Shown piece by piece: positions 2,201 through 10,183 of a stretch of 64,000 nucleotides of DNA (the first letter of the stretch is position 1; each line of letters opens with the position of its first letter). The notes beneath the pieces were generated by a model. It made no database searches. It worked only from the letters and a program-made list of their open reading frames with translations, and had not been told where the DNA came from. The DNA is from Alloprevotella sp. (lineage in GTDB: Bacteria; Bacteroidota; Bacteroidia; Bacteroidales; Bacteroidaceae). Location: contig JAFVDF010000009.1 of the NCBI GenBank assembly GCA_017478625.1, positions 1-64,000 on the forward strand, read 5' to 3'. The translations under genes and the position numbers were made by a program.

Positions 2201-2246
2201 ATTGAACGGTAAAGCGAGGCCAAACGGCTTCGCTTTACCGTTCAAT
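2201..2246. repeat. 46 bp inverted repeat (hairpin) after the MBL gene
   Basis: Two 21-base arms (ATTGAACGGTAAAGCGAGGCC and its complement with one mismatch) flank an AAAC loop. It lies 41 bases after the hydrolase stop and could end that transcript, but there is no run of T on either side. It also marks the left border of the accessory island. Confidence 0.6.
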
Positions 2247-2390
2247 GGTTGCGACTGAACTTCCTTTGTTCAAGCGCATCCGAAATGATGCCTTGGAACT
2301 GCCTACCGAGGCTGTCGCCCATAAATTCCTTGATATTCATGACCGACATATAGTATTTGCGACTGAACCAGTGGCGTTCTTTGCGTTTTA
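2242..2390 (-). pseudogene. C-terminal remnant of an unidentified gene
   Basis: The reverse strand is open for 49 codons and reads like real protein (RKERHWFSRKYYMSVMNIK, then EFMGDSLGRQFQGIISDALE) up to a stop at 2242-2244. The only ATG codons are internal (first about 33 codons before the stop). On its 5' side the reading frame runs straight into the 34 bp array element at 2385. I read it as the 3' end of a gene whose front was removed when the element or its cassette arrived. The family is not recognised. It could also be chance coding potential. Confidence 0.35.
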
Positions 2391-2418
2391 ATCAGCTAAA
2401 TTATTTTATGCTTAAAAC
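2385..2418. repeat. Array element copy 1 (34 bp, inverted ends)
   Basis: Leftmost copy of the spacer element of the small-gene array. The ends are GTTTTAA and TTAAAAC and the centre is TA-rich (TAAATTATTTTA). It lies after the 3' end of the minus-strand gene at 2483-2791. One base is missing in the centre relative to copies 2 and 3. Confidence 0.85.
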
Positions 2419-2482
2419 ACAAGATTGCAGTAAAAGTAAAGAGGGTACATAATATTATGCATCCTCTTTACTTTTTACTTCC

Positions 2483-2791
2483 TTAATAATTATTTATCTC
2501 ATCAAGAGAATCGTATGAAAAATGTTTGCCGTGCCATATATCCAAGAAAAAAATGATAATCCTTTGCACTTCTGGAATTGATTTATCTATCAATTTTCCT
2601 GATAATTCTTTTCGTTTCTCTGCCGCAATAAATGAGTCTGTAAGTCTTAACCAAAAAAAATTATTTGCACAAAGCTCGTATAGTTCTCGTTCTCCTTCCC
2701 ACCATATCCTTTTTGTTGCATCAATTTTGGTAGGAGGAGTATCTTCTTGATTGAAATATTTGAAATGTTTTAATAATTCCTCTCGATTCAT
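2483..2791 (-). CDS. Small array protein A, related to protein at 3182
   Basis: A 102-residue soluble protein, start ATG at 2791, no signal peptide or membrane segment. Its N-terminus (MNREELLKHFKYFNQED, then IWWEGER) aligns with that of the neighbouring array gene at 3182-3484 (MKSDLLQFCRYYKGED, then IWWMLER). The shared pattern is LL-x3-[KR]-Y-[FY]-x2-ED-x2-P ... IWW-x2-ER. I recognise this pattern only as one seen in small hypothetical proteins of gut Bacteroidales, not as a family with known function. The ATG overlaps the TGA that closes a copied transmembrane-helix tail (see 2790-2832). An immunity or antitoxin-like role is inference from context. Confidence 0.75.
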   Translation of the reverse strand: MNREELLKHFKYFNQEDTPPTKIDATKRIWWEGERELYELCANNFFWLRLTDSFIAAEKRKELSGKLIDKSIPEVQRIIIFFLDIWHGKHFSYDSLDEINNY

Positions 2792-2832
2792 ACGCGCCAC
2801 AAGATAAACATAACAACATTTACAATGGTTAT
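2790..2832 (-). repeat. Copied 3' tail of a membrane-protein gene, before gene A
   Basis: Read on the minus strand, this stretch encodes ITIVNVVMFILWRV followed by TGA overlapping the ATG of gene A. It closely matches the C-terminus of the complete gene at 4304-4588 (ITVVNVVMFILWCIV, same ATGA overlap). Only these last 14-15 codons are present; the 35 bp array element abuts directly on the 5' side. Confidence 0.8.
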
Positions 2833-2867
2833 GTTTTAATCATTTAAATATATTTTATGCTTAAAAC
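2833..2867. repeat. Array element copy 2 (35 bp)
   Basis: GTTTTAA...TTAAAAC with the central AAATATATTTTA. It sits directly 5' of the copied tail that precedes gene A and directly 3' of the candidate RNA gene. Confidence 0.88.
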
Positions 2868-2877
2868 TCAATTCGTC

Positions 2878-2987
2878 ATATAAGAACAAGAGGGAAGAAC
2901 CTGTGCGTTCTTACCCCTCTCTAAATGTAAATCTTTCCACAGGGTGCCTTGGCGCATCCGAGCTACTCCCCGTTTTATCTACACTCT
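2878..2987 (-). ncRNA. Candidate small structured RNA of about 110 nt inside the array
   Basis: This array interval holds no open frame, but on the minus strand it has every part of an RNA gene. There is a Bacteroidota promoter (TATCTTTG at 2992-2999 with TTG 21 bases upstream at 3021-3023). An eight-pair helix joins GUGUAGAU (2977-2984) to AUUUACAU (2925-2932) and encloses a GC-rich core containing GUAGCUCGGAUGCGCC. A strong hairpin at 2889-2920 (AGAGGG/CCCUCU with AAGAAC/GUUCUU) is followed by UUGUUCUU as terminator. I cannot assign it to a known family. It could be a regulatory RNA, an RNA antitoxin or a leader, and no gene follows it in the same transcript before the terminator. Confidence 0.6.
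2889..2920 (-). terminator. Terminator of the array RNA
   Basis: Hairpin with AGAGGG and AAGAAC arms around CTGTGC. On the minus strand it is followed by TTGTTCTT. It closes the transcript that starts at about 2985. Confidence 0.65.
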
Positions 2988-2991
2988 GACG

Positions 2992-3023
2992 CAAAGATAA
3001 AAATTATGCCTAAAATGGAACAA
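2992..3023 (-). promoter_or_regulatory. Promoter of the array RNA
   Basis: On the minus strand TTG (3021-3023), 21 bases, then TATCTTTG (2992-2999) match the primary sigma consensus of Bacteroidota (TTG...TAnnTTTG). Confidence 0.65.
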
Positions 3024-3109
3024 GAAAAACTGTATAAATTTTATCCCGGCCCGAAAAATCTATTTACCAAAGTGTTTACAGGTCGCAAACTGTCATACAC
3101 CCCTATTCG

Positions 3110-3144
3110 GTTTTAATCCGCTAAATATATTTTATGCTTAAAAC
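3110..3144. repeat. Array element copy 3 (35 bp)
   Basis: GTTTTAA...TTAAAAC, the cleanest copy together with copy 2. It lies 37 bases after the stop of gene B and before the RNA interval. Confidence 0.88.
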
Positions 3145-3181
3145 AAATCAATGGTAAATGGTATGTCGAATTATAGGAAAT

Positions 3182-3484
3182 TTAGAAAGCAATAGATATA
3201 GATGTAGATTTATCCGCTATATATCCTGCGTTCCATTTGCCTTGTTCGTACAAGGTCTTGGCACGATACAATGCTTCACTCCAATTTGTATTCCATCCCG
3301 AGTCTGATTGCCAAATGCGTTCTCTGATATAGTTTATCATTGTGGGAGATAAGTCTTTATTTGTCTTATCTCCTGCATTAACAGCATATCTCTCTAACAT
3401 CCACCAAATAGAGCGACCATCTTCAAAAGGGGATTTATCCTCGCCTTTATAGTATCGACAGAACTGCAACAAATCACTTTTCAT
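3182..3484 (-). CDS. Small array protein B, paralogue of protein at 2483
   Basis: A 100-residue soluble protein starting at ATG 3484. Its first half (MKSDLLQFCRYYKGEDKSP, then SIWWMLER) aligns with array protein A, while the second half (SDSGWNTNWSEALYRAKTLY) differs. Divergent paralogues side by side in an array of single-gene units are what repeated capture or duplication of immunity-like genes would give, but no function is known to me. The ATG overlaps the TGA of a second copied membrane-helix tail (3483-3526). Confidence 0.75.
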   Translation of the reverse strand: MKSDLLQFCRYYKGEDKSPFEDGRSIWWMLERYAVNAGDKTNKDLSPTMINYIRERIWQSDSGWNTNWSEALYRAKTLYEQGKWNAGYIADKSTSISIAF

Positions 3485-3526
3485 ACCCACCACAATATAA
3501 ACATAGCAACATTTACAACGGTTATC
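3483..3526 (-). repeat. Copied 3' tail of a membrane-protein gene, before gene B
   Basis: On the minus strand this encodes ITVVNVAMFILWWV and TGA overlapping the next ATG, matching the tail before gene A and the C-terminus of the full gene at 4304-4588. Codon changes are mostly silent or conservative, so it was copied as coding sequence. Array element copy 4 abuts its 5' side. Confidence 0.8.
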
Positions 3527-3559
3527 GTTTTAATCTGCTAAATATACTTTATGGTTAAA
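3527..3559. repeat. Array element copy 4 (one end decayed)
   Basis: GTTTTAATCTGCTAAATATA then ACTTTATGGTTAAA. The right end reads GGTTAAAT instead of CTTAAAAC. It overlaps the stop codon of the antitoxin gene at 3555, so the element supplies the end of that reading frame. Confidence 0.8.
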
Positions 3560-3833
3560 TTTCTGTCTTTGGATTTATTTTCCACAAATCATATTGGTTC
3601 TGTAAATTCAGCCAATTTGACGCTGGTGTGCCAAGCGCCTCTTCCAACTTAATGGCAAACTCGGTAGAGATACTTCGCTTCCCGCTTAGTATCAAGCTCA
3701 AAGCCGTTTTATCAACACCGATTGATTCGGCAAACTCTGTCTGTCTAAGCCCTCTTGCTCGTAGTTCGCTTTTGAGGATAGCCCCAGGAGGTAAAACCTC
3801 GTAGGGGCGTTTGTTCTCATTTCTTGTTTCCAT
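3555..3833 (-). CDS. Orphan HigA-family (XRE) antitoxin
   Basis: A 92-residue helix-turn-helix protein of the HigA/VapI addiction-module family: after PPGAILKSELRARGLRQ the HTH runs through TEFAESIGVDKTALSLILSG and ends in KRSISTEFAIKLEEALGTP. Such proteins repress their own operon and neutralise a HigB/RelE-type RNase. No toxin gene is adjacent: the units on both sides encode unrelated proteins, so it is an orphan antitoxin occupying one array unit. The start is the ATG at 3833. Its stop lies inside array element 4. Family assignment is firm; that it guards against an unlinked toxin is inference. Confidence 0.88.
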   Translation of the reverse strand: METRNENKRPYEVLPPGAILKSELRARGLRQTEFAESIGVDKTALSLILSGKRSISTEFAIKLEEALGTPASNWLNLQNQYDLWKINPKTEI

Positions 3834-3850
3834 AATGCGTGTCGTCTAAT

Positions 3851-3885
3851 ATTTTAATCCACTAAATATACTTAATGTTTAAAAC
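3851..3885. repeat. Array element copy 5
   Basis: ATTTTAATCCACTAAATATA then ACTTAATGTTTAAAAC, with the first base and several centre bases changed. It lies upstream of the antitoxin gene. No membrane-tail copy follows it, unlike copies 2 and 4. Confidence 0.8.
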
Positions 3886-3927
3886 AAAATGGCAAATTAA
3901 TCATTGAATGCCATGTTGACAAATAAA

Positions 3928-3956
3928 GAGGACATTAGCCCTCTTTATTTTTTGCT
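3928..3956 (-). terminator. Terminator-like hairpin after gene D
   Basis: AAAGAGGaCATTAGCCCTCTTTATTTTTT contains AAAGAGG/CCTCTTT arms. It overlaps the stop region of the minus-strand gene at 3945 and can act in either direction, with a T run on the plus side and a shorter one on the minus side. Confidence 0.45.
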
Positions 3957-4307
3957 AACCCTATCAGCACAAGAATGCGCTAATAATGCGTCACCCTGAA
4001 AGAATGAAGAATGGATGGAACAAGCACCACCCGATTGTTCATGAACACAGCCATCACAAATGCGCTTTGGCGCATTTTCCCAATCAATCCGAGTGTTCTT
4101 ATTCCATCTATCCCACCACGCACGGTCATGGCCTTCGAAACTTGGGTCATCATAGAAATGGAAGGCATCCTTATCACTCCAATTAGCACAAGAACTGGTA
4201 TTCTTGAACTTCTTACGTTCGGAATTTGGGTGATCAAGATTACAACTGTCTTCTTGGCTGTAGTAGAATCTACAGCGGCCACATATTTGACTCAAATCCA
4301 CACTCAT
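3945..4307 (-). CDS. Cysteine-rich small array protein D
   Basis: A 120-residue soluble protein starting at ATG 4307, coupled to the preceding gene through an ATGA overlap. It has two cysteine clusters, ICGRCRFYY with a following C near residue 28 and ICDGCVHEQSGGACSIH near residues 88-104, each suggestive of a small zinc-binding site. The aromatic, acidic middle contains AWWDRWNKNTRIDWENAP. I do not recognise the family. It is in an operon with the membrane-tailed protein at 4304-4588. A longer frame upstream exists but would lie inside that gene. Confidence 0.72.
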   Translation of the reverse strand: MSVDLSQICGRCRFYYSQEDSCNLDHPNSERKKFKNTSSCANWSDKDAFHFYDDPSFEGHDRAWWDRWNKNTRIDWENAPKRICDGCVHEQSGGACSIHSSFFQGDALLAHSCADRVSKK

Positions 4308-4588
4308 ACGATGCACCACAAAATAAACATAACAACATTTACAACGGTTATCACACCGGAAACGGCGGTAACAAGCCACGGCCACTGCTGACCTTGCATA
4401 TAATTAGCAAGGCAGTTACAGCCCTCAAAAGTAAGCTCTGCGTCCTCGGGAATATGCCCCTCTGACCAAGCCACCTTAATAAGTCCTTCGCGCTCCAAGA
4501 GCGAACAACAAGTCGTAGCCTGCTGCAAGTCGCCAAGCCATACGCTATACAGCGCGAACATCTTTTTACGGTAGTTACTGAATAACAT
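4304..4588 (-). CDS. Small protein with C-terminal transmembrane helix (array gene E)
   Basis: A 94-residue protein from ATG 4588. The soluble N-terminal part (LGDLQQATTCCSLLEREGLI, EDAELTFEGCNCLANYM) is followed by a hydrophobic segment from about residue 68 to the end (WPWLVTAVSGVITVVNVVMF...), probably a single tail-anchored helix. The last 15 codons are the source-like version of the copied tails in front of genes A and B. Its TGA overlaps the ATG of gene D. Function is unknown; a membrane-anchored partner for the gene downstream is a reasonable guess. In this island it is the only complete copy. Confidence 0.68.
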   Translation of the reverse strand: MLFSNYRKKMFALYSVWLGDLQQATTCCSLLEREGLIKVAWSEGHIPEDAELTFEGCNCLANYMQGQQWPWLVTAVSGVITVVNVVMFILWCIV

Positions 4589-4598
4589 AAGCACAAAA

Positions 4599-4820
4599 TT
4601 AAAGATTATTATTCAAACCGCGTGCCCGCCGAGGATTTTTCGGATACTTGCAACAAAAGGGTTCGCGCCAAATGGCGCATTTCTGATTCTTGTACCGAGG
4701 CCCTCCGATACATTCATAAGGATACCCCCCTGTGCTACCTGAACCAGTCGTACACAGCAGACAGGTTTGTAAAATAGCAATACGGACGCGCCTTAATATA
4801 TGGCCGAAAAATCCAAACCA
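4599..4820 (-). pseudogene. ATG-less reading frame, probable gene remnant
   Basis: The minus strand is open for 73 codons between stops and looks coding: TGSGSTGGYPYECIGGP, RYKNQKCAIWREPFCCKYP, with five cysteines. There is no ATG, GTG or TTG in frame near the front, so the start seems lost. The stop is five bases upstream of the frame of gene E, suggesting it once formed an operon with it. The family is not recognised. Confidence 0.4.
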
Positions 4821-5099
4821 CTATAGCCTAATGACGAACCTATTTTGCCGAGACGGGCTATCTTGTCTTGGGTTTGGGAAAATACTCGCAACCAGCAAAT
4901 TACCTTATTGAGTACTGAAATTACATAATCGGATTTTGAAATTCAATAATACAATCTACCAATTCCATTATCCGATTTTTCTAACCCATTATACTATTTG
5001 AGACAACATCAGAAACAGGCTTCAAAGAGAATCTGCCACACAAGAATTGAAACTTGGGGAGAAAAGGTTTCCGGAAAACAAATCCTGTAATAAGTGACT
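4821..5099. other. Non-coding stretch in the island
   Basis: I see no credible gene here. It contains two copies of an ATAATCGGATTTT/ATTATCCGATTTTT motif at about 4926-4939 and 4967-4981; the same motif recurs near 44365. A 61-residue frame crossing into the small membrane-protein gene at 5100 is probably a shadow. Confidence 0.5.
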
Positions 5100-5273
5100 T
5101 TATCGAGGAATACCTGCCACAACCAACATAACCGCAAAGGCCAAGAAAGAAGTAAATCCTGACCATATTAAATTTCCATAAGCCCCTAAAAACGCACTTA
5201 TTACAAAAACGGAAAATGCTACCACGAAAATCAATAGCGAGACGAGGGCCAATATGTTTTTAATCCTTTTCAC
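5100..5273 (-). CDS. Small two-helix membrane protein
   Basis: About 57 residues from a GTG at 5273: a basic start (KRIKN) and two hydrophobic helices (LALVSLLIFVVAFSVFVISA and WSGFTSFLAFAVMLVVAG). No ATG is available; an in-frame GTG at 5339 would add 22 residues, but the shorter form gives a more usual basic N-terminus. A promoter-like TTTG-22-TATATTTA stretch lies just upstream on the minus strand. It may be the right-most member of the island. Function unknown. Confidence 0.45.
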   Translation of the reverse strand: MKRIKNILALVSLLIFVVAFSVFVISAFLGAYGNLIWSGFTSFLAFAVMLVVAGIPR

Positions 5274-5423
5274 AATGTAAATATATATCGAAAAAATCGA
5301 ACTCAATATCAAACTTGTATCATTAAAACTGCCGGGCACTATTTTTCCCGAACCCAGTCTGTCGGAGAATTACACAAAACCCATACAGAGTAGCTCTGTA
5401 GAAAGTATGTTTCTTTCCCCACA

Positions 5424-5478: not shown

Positions 5479-6546
5479 TTACTTCAGTTCTGCAAGATAT
5501 TTAATGGTACGAACCATCTGAGATGTGTAAGAGTTCTCATTGTCATACCAAGAAACAACCTGTACCTGGAAAGTGTCATCATCAACCTTGCTAACCATAG
5601 TCTGGGTAGCGTCAAAGAGTGAACCGAACTTCATACCGATGATGTCGCTAGAAACGATCTGGTCTTCCGTGTAACCGAAAGATTCAGTAACGGCTGCTTT
5701 CATAGCAGCGTTGATACCTTCAACGGTAACGTCCTTTGCCTTTACAACAGCCACGAGAATAGTCGTAGAACCCGTGGGAGTTGGAACGCGCTGAGCAGAA
5801 CCAATCAGTTTGCCGTTGAGTTCGGGGATAACGAGACCGATAGCTTTAGCAGCACCAGTAGAATTGGGCACGATATTGCAAGCGCCTGCACGACTACGAC
5901 GAAGATCGCCCTTACGCTGTGGGCCATCGAGAATCATCTGGTCGCCCGTATAAGCGTGGATAGTGGACATGATACCGCTGGCGATAGGAGCATAGTTGTT
6001 CAGAGCTGCTGCCATAGGAGCAAGACAGTTTGTGGTGCAAGATGCTGCGGAGATGATGGTGTCTTCCGGAGTCAGCGTCTCGTGGTTTACATTGTAAACG
6101 ATGGTGGGAAGGTCATTGCCTGCAGGAGCAGAGATGACAACCTTCTTGGCACCAGCCTGAATATGAGCAGAAGCCTTTGCCTTAGAGGTGTAGAAACCTG
6201 TGCACTCGAGTACAACATCTACGCCGAGTTCGCCCCAAGGAAGTTCTGCAGCGTTAGGCTTTGCATAGATTGTGATTTCCTTACCGTCAACCGTAATAGA
6301 ACCTGGAGTAACAACCGTTTTGCCGTCTTCTGCAACAACTGCATCTTTGAATTCTACCGTATGTTTGCCTTCGCCAAATTTACCAGCGAAACCACCCTGA
6401 GCTGTATCATACTTCAGCAGGTGTGCAAGCATTTTCGGACTTGTCAGGTCGTTGATAGCCACAACTTCATAGCCTTCAGCCTCAAACATCTGACGGAAAG
6501 CGAGACGACCAATACGGCCGAAACCGTTAATAGCAACTTTTGTCAT
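5479..6546 (-). CDS. gapA: Glyceraldehyde-3-phosphate dehydrogenase, type I
   Basis: The cytoplasmic NAD-dependent glycolytic enzyme converts glyceraldehyde 3-phosphate, phosphate and NAD to 1,3-bisphosphoglycerate. The Rossmann start ([20 protein letters not shown]), the catalytic cysteine motif [18 protein letters not shown], the HAYTGDQ catalytic histidine region and the C-terminal [15 protein letters not shown] are all intact. At 355 residues it is slightly longer than the usual 335-340, with the extra residues in the [15 protein letters not shown] region of the N-terminal domain. It is a single-gene unit with its own TAATTTTG promoter and terminator, and codon use is strongly biased, as expected for a highly expressed gene. 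Confidence 0.97.
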
Positions 6547-9286: not shown

Positions 9287-10183
9287 CTACGCTCTTTCCG
9301 AATCACGAGGATGGGCCTTTTCATACTCACGGCGTAACTCTTCAAAAGTCGTATGAGTATAAATCTGAGTCGTGGCGAGACTTTCGTGTCCCAACATCTG
9401 TCGCACAGCTTCGAGGTCGGCTCCGTTGTCCAACATTACCGTGGCAAATGTGTGTCGTAGCACATGTGGACTACGTTTTTGCTGGGCGGTAACTAAAGAC
9501 AGATACTTCTTAACTAACACTTGTACTTGCCGCACAGAGATGCGCCGGCCACGGCTGTTCACGAACAACGCTGAAGTCAGCCTTTGGGGACTACTTTTCA
9601 GTTCCGTTATATAATTTTGGAGAGCAAGGGACAATTCCCTGGTAATGGGTATAAGTCGCTCTTTGTTGCGTTTACCTATCACGCGGATATTTTGTTCGTT
9701 TAACCGCACGTCTTCTATATCAAGTCCTACGATTTCACTAACACGCATCCCCGTAGAGTAGAGTGTCAGCAATATCATACGGTCGCGCGACTCTTCTGAA
9801 GTGTCATCGCTAACGATGTCATCCAGCAACTGGTTCATTTGGCTCTTGCGCAAAAAAGCTGGAAGTGGTTTTGAGGCTTTGGGCACTTGAAGATTATGGG
9901 CAGGATCTATACTGATTACATCCGTCAGCATCAGATAACGATAAAAAGAACGCACCGCACTACGCTCACGCCTAATAGTGCGTGGATTTGTACCCTGTTG
10001 CATCCGCTGAGCCATCCAACGGCGTAATATATCTATATCAATCGTCTGCCAAGTAAGATTTTCATCTTGCGACTTTATATAATCGCGCAGATGTTGTAGG
10101 GTGGAAGCATAGGCTTTTATGGTAAGACCCGAATAGCCTCGCTCGGCTCGCAGATAGTCCAGGAATTTACCCACAAGGTCCAT
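9287..10183 (-). CDS. xerC: Tyrosine recombinase, XerC/XerD type
   Basis: A 298-residue recombinase of normal length for XerC/D. It has a SAM-like core-binding domain (LDYLRAERGYSGLTIKAYAS) and a complete catalytic set: Arg in STGMRVSEIVGLD, Lys in VIGKRNKERLIP, HVLRHTFATVMLD with its His and Arg, GHESLATTQIYTH with the second His and the nucleophilic Tyr. It likely resolves chromosome dimers at dif in the cytoplasm with a partner Xer protein. The position near hpf fits a housekeeping gene rather than an integrase. Whether it is XerC or XerD cannot be decided from the sequence alone. Confidence 0.9.
   Translation of the reverse strand: MDLVGKFLDYLRAERGYSGLTIKAYASTLQHLRDYIKSQDENLTWQTIDIDILRRWMAQRMQQGTNPRTIRRERSAVRSFYRYLMLTDVISIDPAHNLQVPKASKPLPAFLRKSQMNQLLDDIVSDDTSEESRDRMILLTLYSTGMRVSEIVGLDIEDVRLNEQNIRVIGKRNKERLIPITRELSLALQNYITELKSSPQRLTSALFVNSRGRRISVRQVQVLVKKYLSLVTAQQKRSPHVLRHTFATVMLDNGADLEAVRQMLGHESLATTQIYTHTTFEELRREYEKAHPRDSERA

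What the first reader, a model, noticed from the sequence alone, without database searches (positions are those of the whole stretch)
2385..5340. Gene-cassette-like array of single small genes separated by 35 bp elements
Five copies of a 34-35 bp sequence with GTTTTAA and TTAAAAC ends (2385, 2833, 3110, 3527, 3851) separate single units that are all on the minus strand: protein A, an RNA gene, protein B, an orphan HigA antitoxin, and a two-gene unit. The island is clearly more AT-rich than gapA or the hydrolase on either side. This resembles immunity-gene arrays of Bacteroidales (recombinase-associated acquired interbacterial defence, rAID), where repeats separate orphan immunity or antitoxin genes. 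No recombinase is adjacent here, and the element does not fit the integron attC consensus, so this could be a distinct or decayed system.
Basis: partly seen in the sequence, partly recalled or inferred. Interest (0 to 1): 0.85.

Follow-up and report, generated by a model that had tools for sequence, protein, structure and literature searches.

The report
Cassette array of orphan immunity genes
A Bacteroidales bacterium carries a row of small antidote-type genes, some apparently cut out of phage-type toxin loci, each bounded by a 35-base repeat that looks like a recombination site, which suggests a way for bacteria to collect protection against toxins they do not make.

Summary
In detail: five co-oriented 34-35 bp elements bound small modules in an AT-rich island. 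Two more copies lie on contig C5, which abuts the window start. The element was not found in 57 congeners, 398 other family genomes (overlapping, sampled sets) or a GTDB pattern scan.

Genes A, B and D look like orphan immunity genes from MuF (Bxa-type) polymorphic-toxin loci. D's module aligns with a congener's toxin-immunity locus, and the similarity begins 2 bases from the element, inside the toxin's last 13 codons. A and B keep the same ~45-bp tail of the gene preceding D. B matches phrog_19606, the small ORF beside Bxa-type toxins in phages; A is a remote relative. The other modules hold an orphan HigA and an RNA gene.

The RNA cassette's promoter part recurs behind a nicotinate phosphoribosyltransferase gene, there flanked by 30-bp direct repeats resembling the element: a sign of site-specific cassette mobility.

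It works like rAID or an integron but fails membership: no adjacent dedicated recombinase, no attC consensus, MuF rather than T6SS toxins. The recombinase is unknown (XerC and XerD types are present), protection is inferred, and everything rests on one 59%-complete MAG. New variant of a known kind.

The parts
2385..2418 (-). element copy 1 (34 bp); left of it a gene fragment (2242-2384, minus) is open into the element
2432..2475 (.). terminator-like inverted repeat behind gene A
   Evidence: I2
2483..2791 (-). gene A (102 aa), remote relative of the B family
2788..2832 (-). remnant of the 3' tail of the P0004 gene, its stop overlapping the start of A
2833..2867 (-). element copy 2
2868..3109 (-). 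RNA cassette; promoter-like sequence 2992-3023; its 2991-3076 part recurs at C5:66151-66237
3110..3144 (-). element copy 3 (consensus copy)
3147..3176 (+). probable 3' remnant of a Bxa-type toxin gene (INGKWYVEL, stop)
3182..3484 (-). gene B (100 aa), phrog_19606 family, the small ORF beside Bxa-type toxins
3481..3526 (-). remnant of the 3' tail of the P0004 gene in front of B
3527..3561 (-). element copy 4 (one arm decayed; holds the stop codon of higA)
3555..3833 (-). orphan higA antitoxin gene (92 aa)
3851..3885 (-). element copy 5
3886..3926 (+). 3' remnant of a MuF-type toxin gene (NGKLIIECHVDK, stop)
3945..4307 (-). gene D (120 aa), immunity-type gene, 49% identical to the gene converging with a MuF-type toxin in congener G018
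4304..4588 (-). P0004 gene (94 aa), intact source of the tails in front of A and B; its stop overlaps the start of D

Best explanation
A chromosomal poly-immunity array assembled by site-specific recombination. The 35-bp element is an att-like site. Non-autonomous cassettes, most carrying one protective gene (immunity genes clipped out of MuF/Bxa-type polymorphic-toxin loci, an orphan HigA antitoxin, a small RNA), are joined head to tail at directly repeated sites. The toxin gene is lost except for its last codons, so the cell keeps protection only. The likely benefit is resistance to phage-borne MuF toxins released by relatives or brought by incoming phages. Shown: the array, the site distribution, the toxin-end remnant of D, the shared P0004 tails of A and B, the family of B, and a second RNA cassette between element-like direct repeats at the 3' end of a nicotinate phosphoribosyltransferase gene. 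Inferred: that the site is recombined at all, by which enzyme (XerC/XerD or one in the missing 41% of the genome), how a cassette is first cut out, and that the genes protect.
For: Seven co-oriented copies confined to one locus. D module: free alignment with 285 bp of extra upstream sequence begins 2 bp from the element, 45 of 60 bases identical after it and 7 of 35 before it; toxin tails 9 of 12 residues alike, 0 of 1,000,000 shuffles. Tails in front of A and B: 34 of 36 bases each as in P0004, then 2 and 3 of 20 beyond the boundary. B family beside Bxa-type proteins in L031 and phage Versailles. A: hhalign probability 87, E 4e-6. RNA cassette at a second place between 30-bp direct repeats, one of them the 3' end of the neighbouring gene; repeat scores 17.2 bits on the element profile, reached by 0 of 525,318 control and 3 of 1,998,640 random positions.
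Against: One MAG, 58.9% complete; no strain comparison, no excision product, no empty site. No dedicated recombinase next to the array. The element is not recognisable in the congener's source-like islands (best 4.9 and 4.6 bits), so how it came to the new boundaries is unexplained. B's toxin tail matches L031 poorly (3 of 9; 4,596 of 300,000 shuffles). No toxin tail recognised for A. The RNA transcripts of the two copies differ apart from the promoter part. dif pattern test uninformative. An orphan B-family gene also occurs without element or array (L060).
Confidence: 0.55

Rival explanations
1. Sequential displacement: newer toxin-immunity modules replaced older ones by homologous or illegitimate recombination, leaving older immunity genes with toxin 3' ends, as proposed for T6SS immunity arrays of Vibrio cholerae. 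The 35-bp repeats would be passive homology.
For: Toxin and upstream-gene remnants are present; the V. cholerae model includes displaced effector 3' ends (PMC5361080, passages). Shared tails in front of A and B could serve as homology.
Against: Does not explain a conserved 35-bp sequence at each boundary, also around an RNA gene and HigA, nor the element-like direct repeats around the second RNA cassette.
Confidence: 0.2
2. A member, perhaps decayed, of rAID.
For: Co-oriented genes of about 100 codons, 35% GC, conserved intergenic motif, as listed for rAID in PMC12247911 (passages).
Against: No rAID-type recombinase adjacent; the 5 tyrosine-recombinase matches in the held genome lie elsewhere, the nearest being XerC-type at 9287-10183. 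Genes trace to MuF loci, not T6SS. The rAID motif itself was not available for comparison.
Confidence: 0.1
3. Remains of a decayed phage island in which a short repeat accumulated and rearranged genes, with no capture system and no selected function.
For: Several genes are cut by elements: an ORF ending at C5:2310, a MutS domain-I ORF without a start, a fragment at window 2242-2384. Arms of copies 4 and 5 are decayed.
Against: A, B, HigA and D are intact frames; element copies are alike while modules differ; RNA cassette at a second site.
Confidence: 0.15

Closest known systems
rAID arrays of Bacteroidales
   Same: Array of short, low-GC, co-oriented orphan immunity genes with a conserved intergenic motif.
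   Different: No adjacent tyrosine recombinase; immunity to MuF phage-type toxins instead of T6SS effectors; also carries an RNA gene and HigA; motifs not compared.
MuF polymorphic toxin loci with Bxa, BAH and Bsi (Bacteroides prophages)
   Same: B is of the family of the small ORF converging with Bxa-type genes; D and its toxin tail match a MuF locus.
   Different: Toxins are missing; several immunity genes stand in a row bounded by a repeat. PMC11699363 raises poly-immunity for MuF loci only as a possibility (section 8).
Integron gene cassettes
   Same: Single-gene modules between directly repeated imperfectly palindromic sites in one orientation.
   Different: 35 bp, no attC core consensus at the ends, no integron integrase found; hairpin not kept in all copies folded.
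Xer-dependent dif modules of Acinetobacter plasmids
   Same: Small modules, often toxin-antitoxin genes, between short sites with no recombinase of their own; XerC and XerD types present in the genome.
   Different: dif modules alternate in site orientation (PMC13141974, passages); here all seven sites point the same way; likeness to dif could not be established.
T6SS immunity gene arrays of Vibrio cholerae
   Same: Old immunity genes kept while the toxin is lost, toxin 3' ends left over.
   Different: No specific site there (PMC5361080, passages); here a repeat stands at each boundary.

Membership tests
rAID | Predicted tyrosine recombinase upstream of the array | tested here: not met
   5 PF00589 matches in the held genome, none adjacent; nearest is a XerC-type gene with gapA and other genes between. 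The genome is 59% complete, but the window flanks are present.
[quoted passage not shown]
   GC was measured for the island as a whole, not gene by gene.
rAID | Conserved intergenic motif | tested here: inconclusive
   A motif exists; the rAID motif was not at hand to compare.
rAID | Orphan immunity genes against T6SS effectors | tested here: not met
   B and D match MuF-type loci; A weakly the same; HigA is an antitoxin.
Integron cassettes | attC core RYYYAAC...GTTRRRY at the ends (consensus recalled, not from a call) | tested here: not met
   Ends read GTTTTAA...TTAAAAC.
Integron cassettes | Integron integrase in the genome | tested here: inconclusive
   5 tyrosine-recombinase matches; 4 scanned, none near the integron-integrase cut-off; 41% of the genome is missing.
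dif modules | 28-bp XerC/XerD sites like the host's dif | tested here: inconclusive
   No dif found in 14 genus genomes with a proteobacterial-type pattern: 3 hits against 3 for the reversed control.
dif modules | Alternating site orientation | tested here: not met
   Seven of seven copies co-oriented.
MuF/Bxa immunity proteins (gene B) | Homology to the small ORF beside a Bxa-type MuF toxin | tested here: met
   phrog_19606 E 3.1e-5 for B, 2.2e-58 for the Versailles-type protein; gene order; the neighbour is phrog_16625.
MuF/Bxa immunity proteins (gene B) | Neutralises its toxin | not testable with these tools
   Needs co-expression.

The most novel reading that the evidence does not exclude
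A capture system of Bacteroidales, neither integron nor rAID, that turns immunity genes, antitoxins and small RNAs into mobile cassettes freed from their toxins, using a site related to the 3' end of a nicotinate phosphoribosyltransferase gene as its attachment sequence (plus strand of the element GCTAAATATATTTTATGCTTA runs in register with the gene's GCTAAATATATTCTGGGACTA), and so builds poly-immunity against phage-borne toxins.
Probability: 0.3. Interest if true: 0.87.

Novelty: new variant of a known kind. Interest (0 to 1): 0.62.

Why it matters
Poly-immunity is known for T6SS and related toxins; for phage MuF toxins it had only been suggested (PMC11699363, section 8). If right, cells can bank antidotes to toxins that travel with phages, and a defined short site offers a handle on how an antidote gene is parted from its toxin. 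The second RNA cassette at a housekeeping gene makes the recombination claim directly testable.

Tried and rejected
Considered and set aside: transposon scar or MITE (35 bp, no target duplication seen by eye); dispersed intergenic repeat; known RNA family for the RNA cassette (nothing at gathering score); CRISPR (spacing 277-449). The proteobacterial-type dif pattern gave 3 hits against 3 reversed controls. Viral-contig searches: P0002 and its L031 homologue gave 1 contig, the same one; P0004, P0003 and P0001 gave none; the element and RNA-promoter patterns gave none. Phage records by tblastn: P0002 gave Versailles only, P0003 one weak Aeromonas phage match (E 0.06), P0001 and P0004 none. blastn of the island in phages and plasmids gave none; the C5 RNA region in plasmids none. 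B in 58 genus genomes: own only. GTDB scan with the B family: 2 confirmed of 52 pattern stretches. A site match in G029 lies in an unrelated long frame. A first DNA alignment of the D module began at the element by construction; I repeated it with extra upstream sequence, which bears the claim out. Two structure predictions had not finished when last asked; nothing rests on them. No description of a MuF poly-immunity array turned up in the listings (open-licence PMC library only). The 34-bp form of the element could not be sought genome-wide, because the mismatch search allows no gaps.
Full report
WHAT IS THERE. The five repeats are real, co-oriented and at the stated places, in an AT-rich island (35.3% GC over 2385-3890 against 48.3% and 45.8% on the two sides). 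On the minus strand they read close to GTTTTAARCATAAARTATATTTAGCRGATTAAAAC. Copy 1 is 34 bp; copy 4 has a decayed arm. Two more copies lie at C5:2310-2344 and C5:3986-4020. C5 and the window's contig overlap end to end by 24 nt through one intact LysR frame, so I take both groups as one locus between a tRNA(Thr-Gly-Tyr)-tuf cluster (tuf by reading) and gapA. Between the two groups lie ordinary genes (serine hydrolase PF00144, LysR, DsbA PF01323, metallo-hydrolase PF00753). All seven copies point the same way.

DISTRIBUTION. With up to 3 mismatches only the own genome matched among 58 genus genomes and among 399 family genomes, an even draw that includes some of the 58. A degenerate exact pattern gave 0 stretches in the GTDB collection and 0 in viral contigs; both tools may leave out the genome itself. 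The own genome is 58.9% complete, so the copy number is a lower bound.

GENE D. The two-gene unit is the key. Gene P0004 (4304-4588) ends ...VITVVNVVMFILWCIV* and its stop overlaps the start of gene D (3945-4307). In congener G018 two chromosomal islands carry P0004 homologues (79% identity), each upstream of a small gene that converges with a MuF-type protein. These islands are not whole prophages: one MuF frame is cut by the contig start, the other lacks its N-terminal part and sits beside genes that I read as trigger factor and ClpP. Their MuF parts match phrog_16625, 'Bxa ADP-ribosyl transferase' (E 1.3e-11 and 1.1e-76). D is 49% identical over 117 residues to the small gene of the first island. 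Given 285 bp of extra upstream sequence, a free alignment of the D module with that island begins at window 3888, 2 bp from the element, with 45 of 60 bases identical after that point and 7 of 35 before it. The shared part is the last 13 codons of the toxin gene (NGKLIIECHVDK* against NGKLIIQCRVEK*; 9 of 12, 0 of 1,000,000 shuffles). So D is an immunity-type gene whose toxin has been cut away at the element.

GENES A AND B. In front of both stands the 3' tail of P0004 (34 of 36 bases each), ending at the element at the same place to within one base (beyond it 2 and 3 of 20 bases match). B matches phrog_19606 (E 3.1e-5). A viral contig (L031) has a B homologue overlapping tail to tail with an 884-aa protein of phrog_16625 (E 3.8e-159). 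Bacteroides phage Versailles has one between an ADP-ribosylglycohydrolase gene and a convergent 869-aa phrog_16625 protein, with portal and terminase genes beyond. In B. stercoris Bxa is neutralised by the hydrolase BAH and by a small binding protein, Bsi; a third small ORF did not neutralise (PMC11699363; abstract, sections 6-8 and passages seen). Bsi residues K89, Y90 and E92, tested there, have a K-Y-x-E counterpart at 86-89 of the Versailles protein, so phrog_19606 is probably the Bsi family; I did not have the Bsi sequence. Between element 3 and B the plus strand reads INGKWYVEL*, like TNGKWYIDM near the end of the Versailles protein (5 of 9; 102 of 300,000 shuffles), but L031 fits less (3 of 9; 4,596 of 300,000): probable, not proven. 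A is a remote relative of the B family (hhalign probability 87, E 4e-6 over 35 columns; D 1.2 and HigA 0.1 as controls), without a BLASTP or PHROG match or a recognised toxin tail.

HIGA. P0005 is a HigA antitoxin over NCBIfam's cut-off. The ORF list shows no partner in its module; no separate HigB search was run.

THE RNA CASSETTE. Module 2 holds the only promoter of the pattern used in the island and a foldable transcript. Its 2991-3076 part recurs once in the genome, at C5:66151-66237, 92% identical; the transcripts diverge but keep the same order and a common stretch. There the cassette lies directly behind a gene that I read as nicotinate phosphoribosyltransferase (392-aa frame ending FEVAKYILGL*), between two direct repeats AGTCCCAGAATATRTTTAGCCACTTCAAAC, one being the gene's own 3' end and the other a duplicate. 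They resemble the element: 17.2 bits on its profile, reached by 0 of 525,318 positions in 20 non-own loci and 3 of 1,998,640 random positions (copy 1 left out of the profile; five plain shuffles of the window peaked at 10.6-15.6). Orientation relative to the RNA gene is as in the array. A pattern for this site matched 5 places in the own genome (3 elements and the 2 repeats) and 1 in 57 other genomes, the latter in an unrelated frame. A duplicated gene end around a small cassette is a usual mark of site-specific integration (established knowledge).

MECHANISM. Elements also cut other genes: an ORF ends at C5:2310 (no family match), a MutS domain-I frame starts without a start codon behind it, and a fragment at window 2242-2384 is open into copy 1. 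The best reading is a site used by a tyrosine recombinase acting in trans, joining fragments into a co-oriented array. XerC-type (window 9287-10183) and XerD-type (C15:343271) genes are present, each best to its model and just under the strict cut-off; two ~400-aa integrases and a broken one also occur. Which acts, if any, is unknown, and likeness to dif could not be tested. Of four copies folded as single strands, two beat shuffles (z -2.35 and -3.72) and two do not (-1.00 and 0.37), which speaks against a folded attC-like site.

AGAINST. One MAG, no strains, no excision product, no empty site (of 13 gapA loci from 12 congeners, some short, none had the neighbours used as queries). The element is not recognisable in the congener islands, so its origin at new boundaries is unexplained. 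Protection is inferred. A lone B-family gene without toxin or element in a yak-reticulum Bacteroidales MAG shows that orphan copies occur without such an array.

KNOWN SYSTEMS. rAID features come from PMC12247911 (passages): the low-GC co-oriented genes are met, the adjacent recombinase is not. dif modules alternate in orientation (PMC13141974, passages). V. cholerae immunity arrays are explained by displacement without a specific site (PMC5361080, passages). MuF toxins as a phage family: PMC5576092 (passages). Poly-immunity for MuF loci is raised as a possibility in PMC11699363 (section 8); no such array turned up in the listings.

Noticed in passing
L047 1-2053 and L048 5396-7766 (congener G018): Two stand-alone chromosomal islands of an incomplete MuF-type toxin frame, a different converging small gene each, and a shared P0004 gene.
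   Followed up: partly
L060 4705-5058: Lone B-family gene without toxin or element in a Bacteroidales MAG from yak reticulum.
   Followed up: partly
window 4897-5000: A stretch of about 60-100 bp recurs at 7 other places in the genome at 70-96% identity: a dispersed repeat family.
   Followed up: no
L017 1639-3573 (C5): A frame cut short by an element, a MutS domain-I frame without a start, and two small frames without family names between two elements.
   Followed up: partly
window 2868-3109 and L018 4150-4356: Two RNA genes with a near-identical promoter region but different transcripts; no Rfam family.
   Followed up: partly
L061 9229-14856: B. acidifaciens DSM 15896 contig with protein-identical BAH, B-family, Bxa-type and portal genes of Bacteroides phage Versailles.
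   Followed up: no
window 5479-6546: gapA is conserved in the genus, but none of the neighbours used as queries lies near it in 13 loci of 12 congeners.
   Followed up: no
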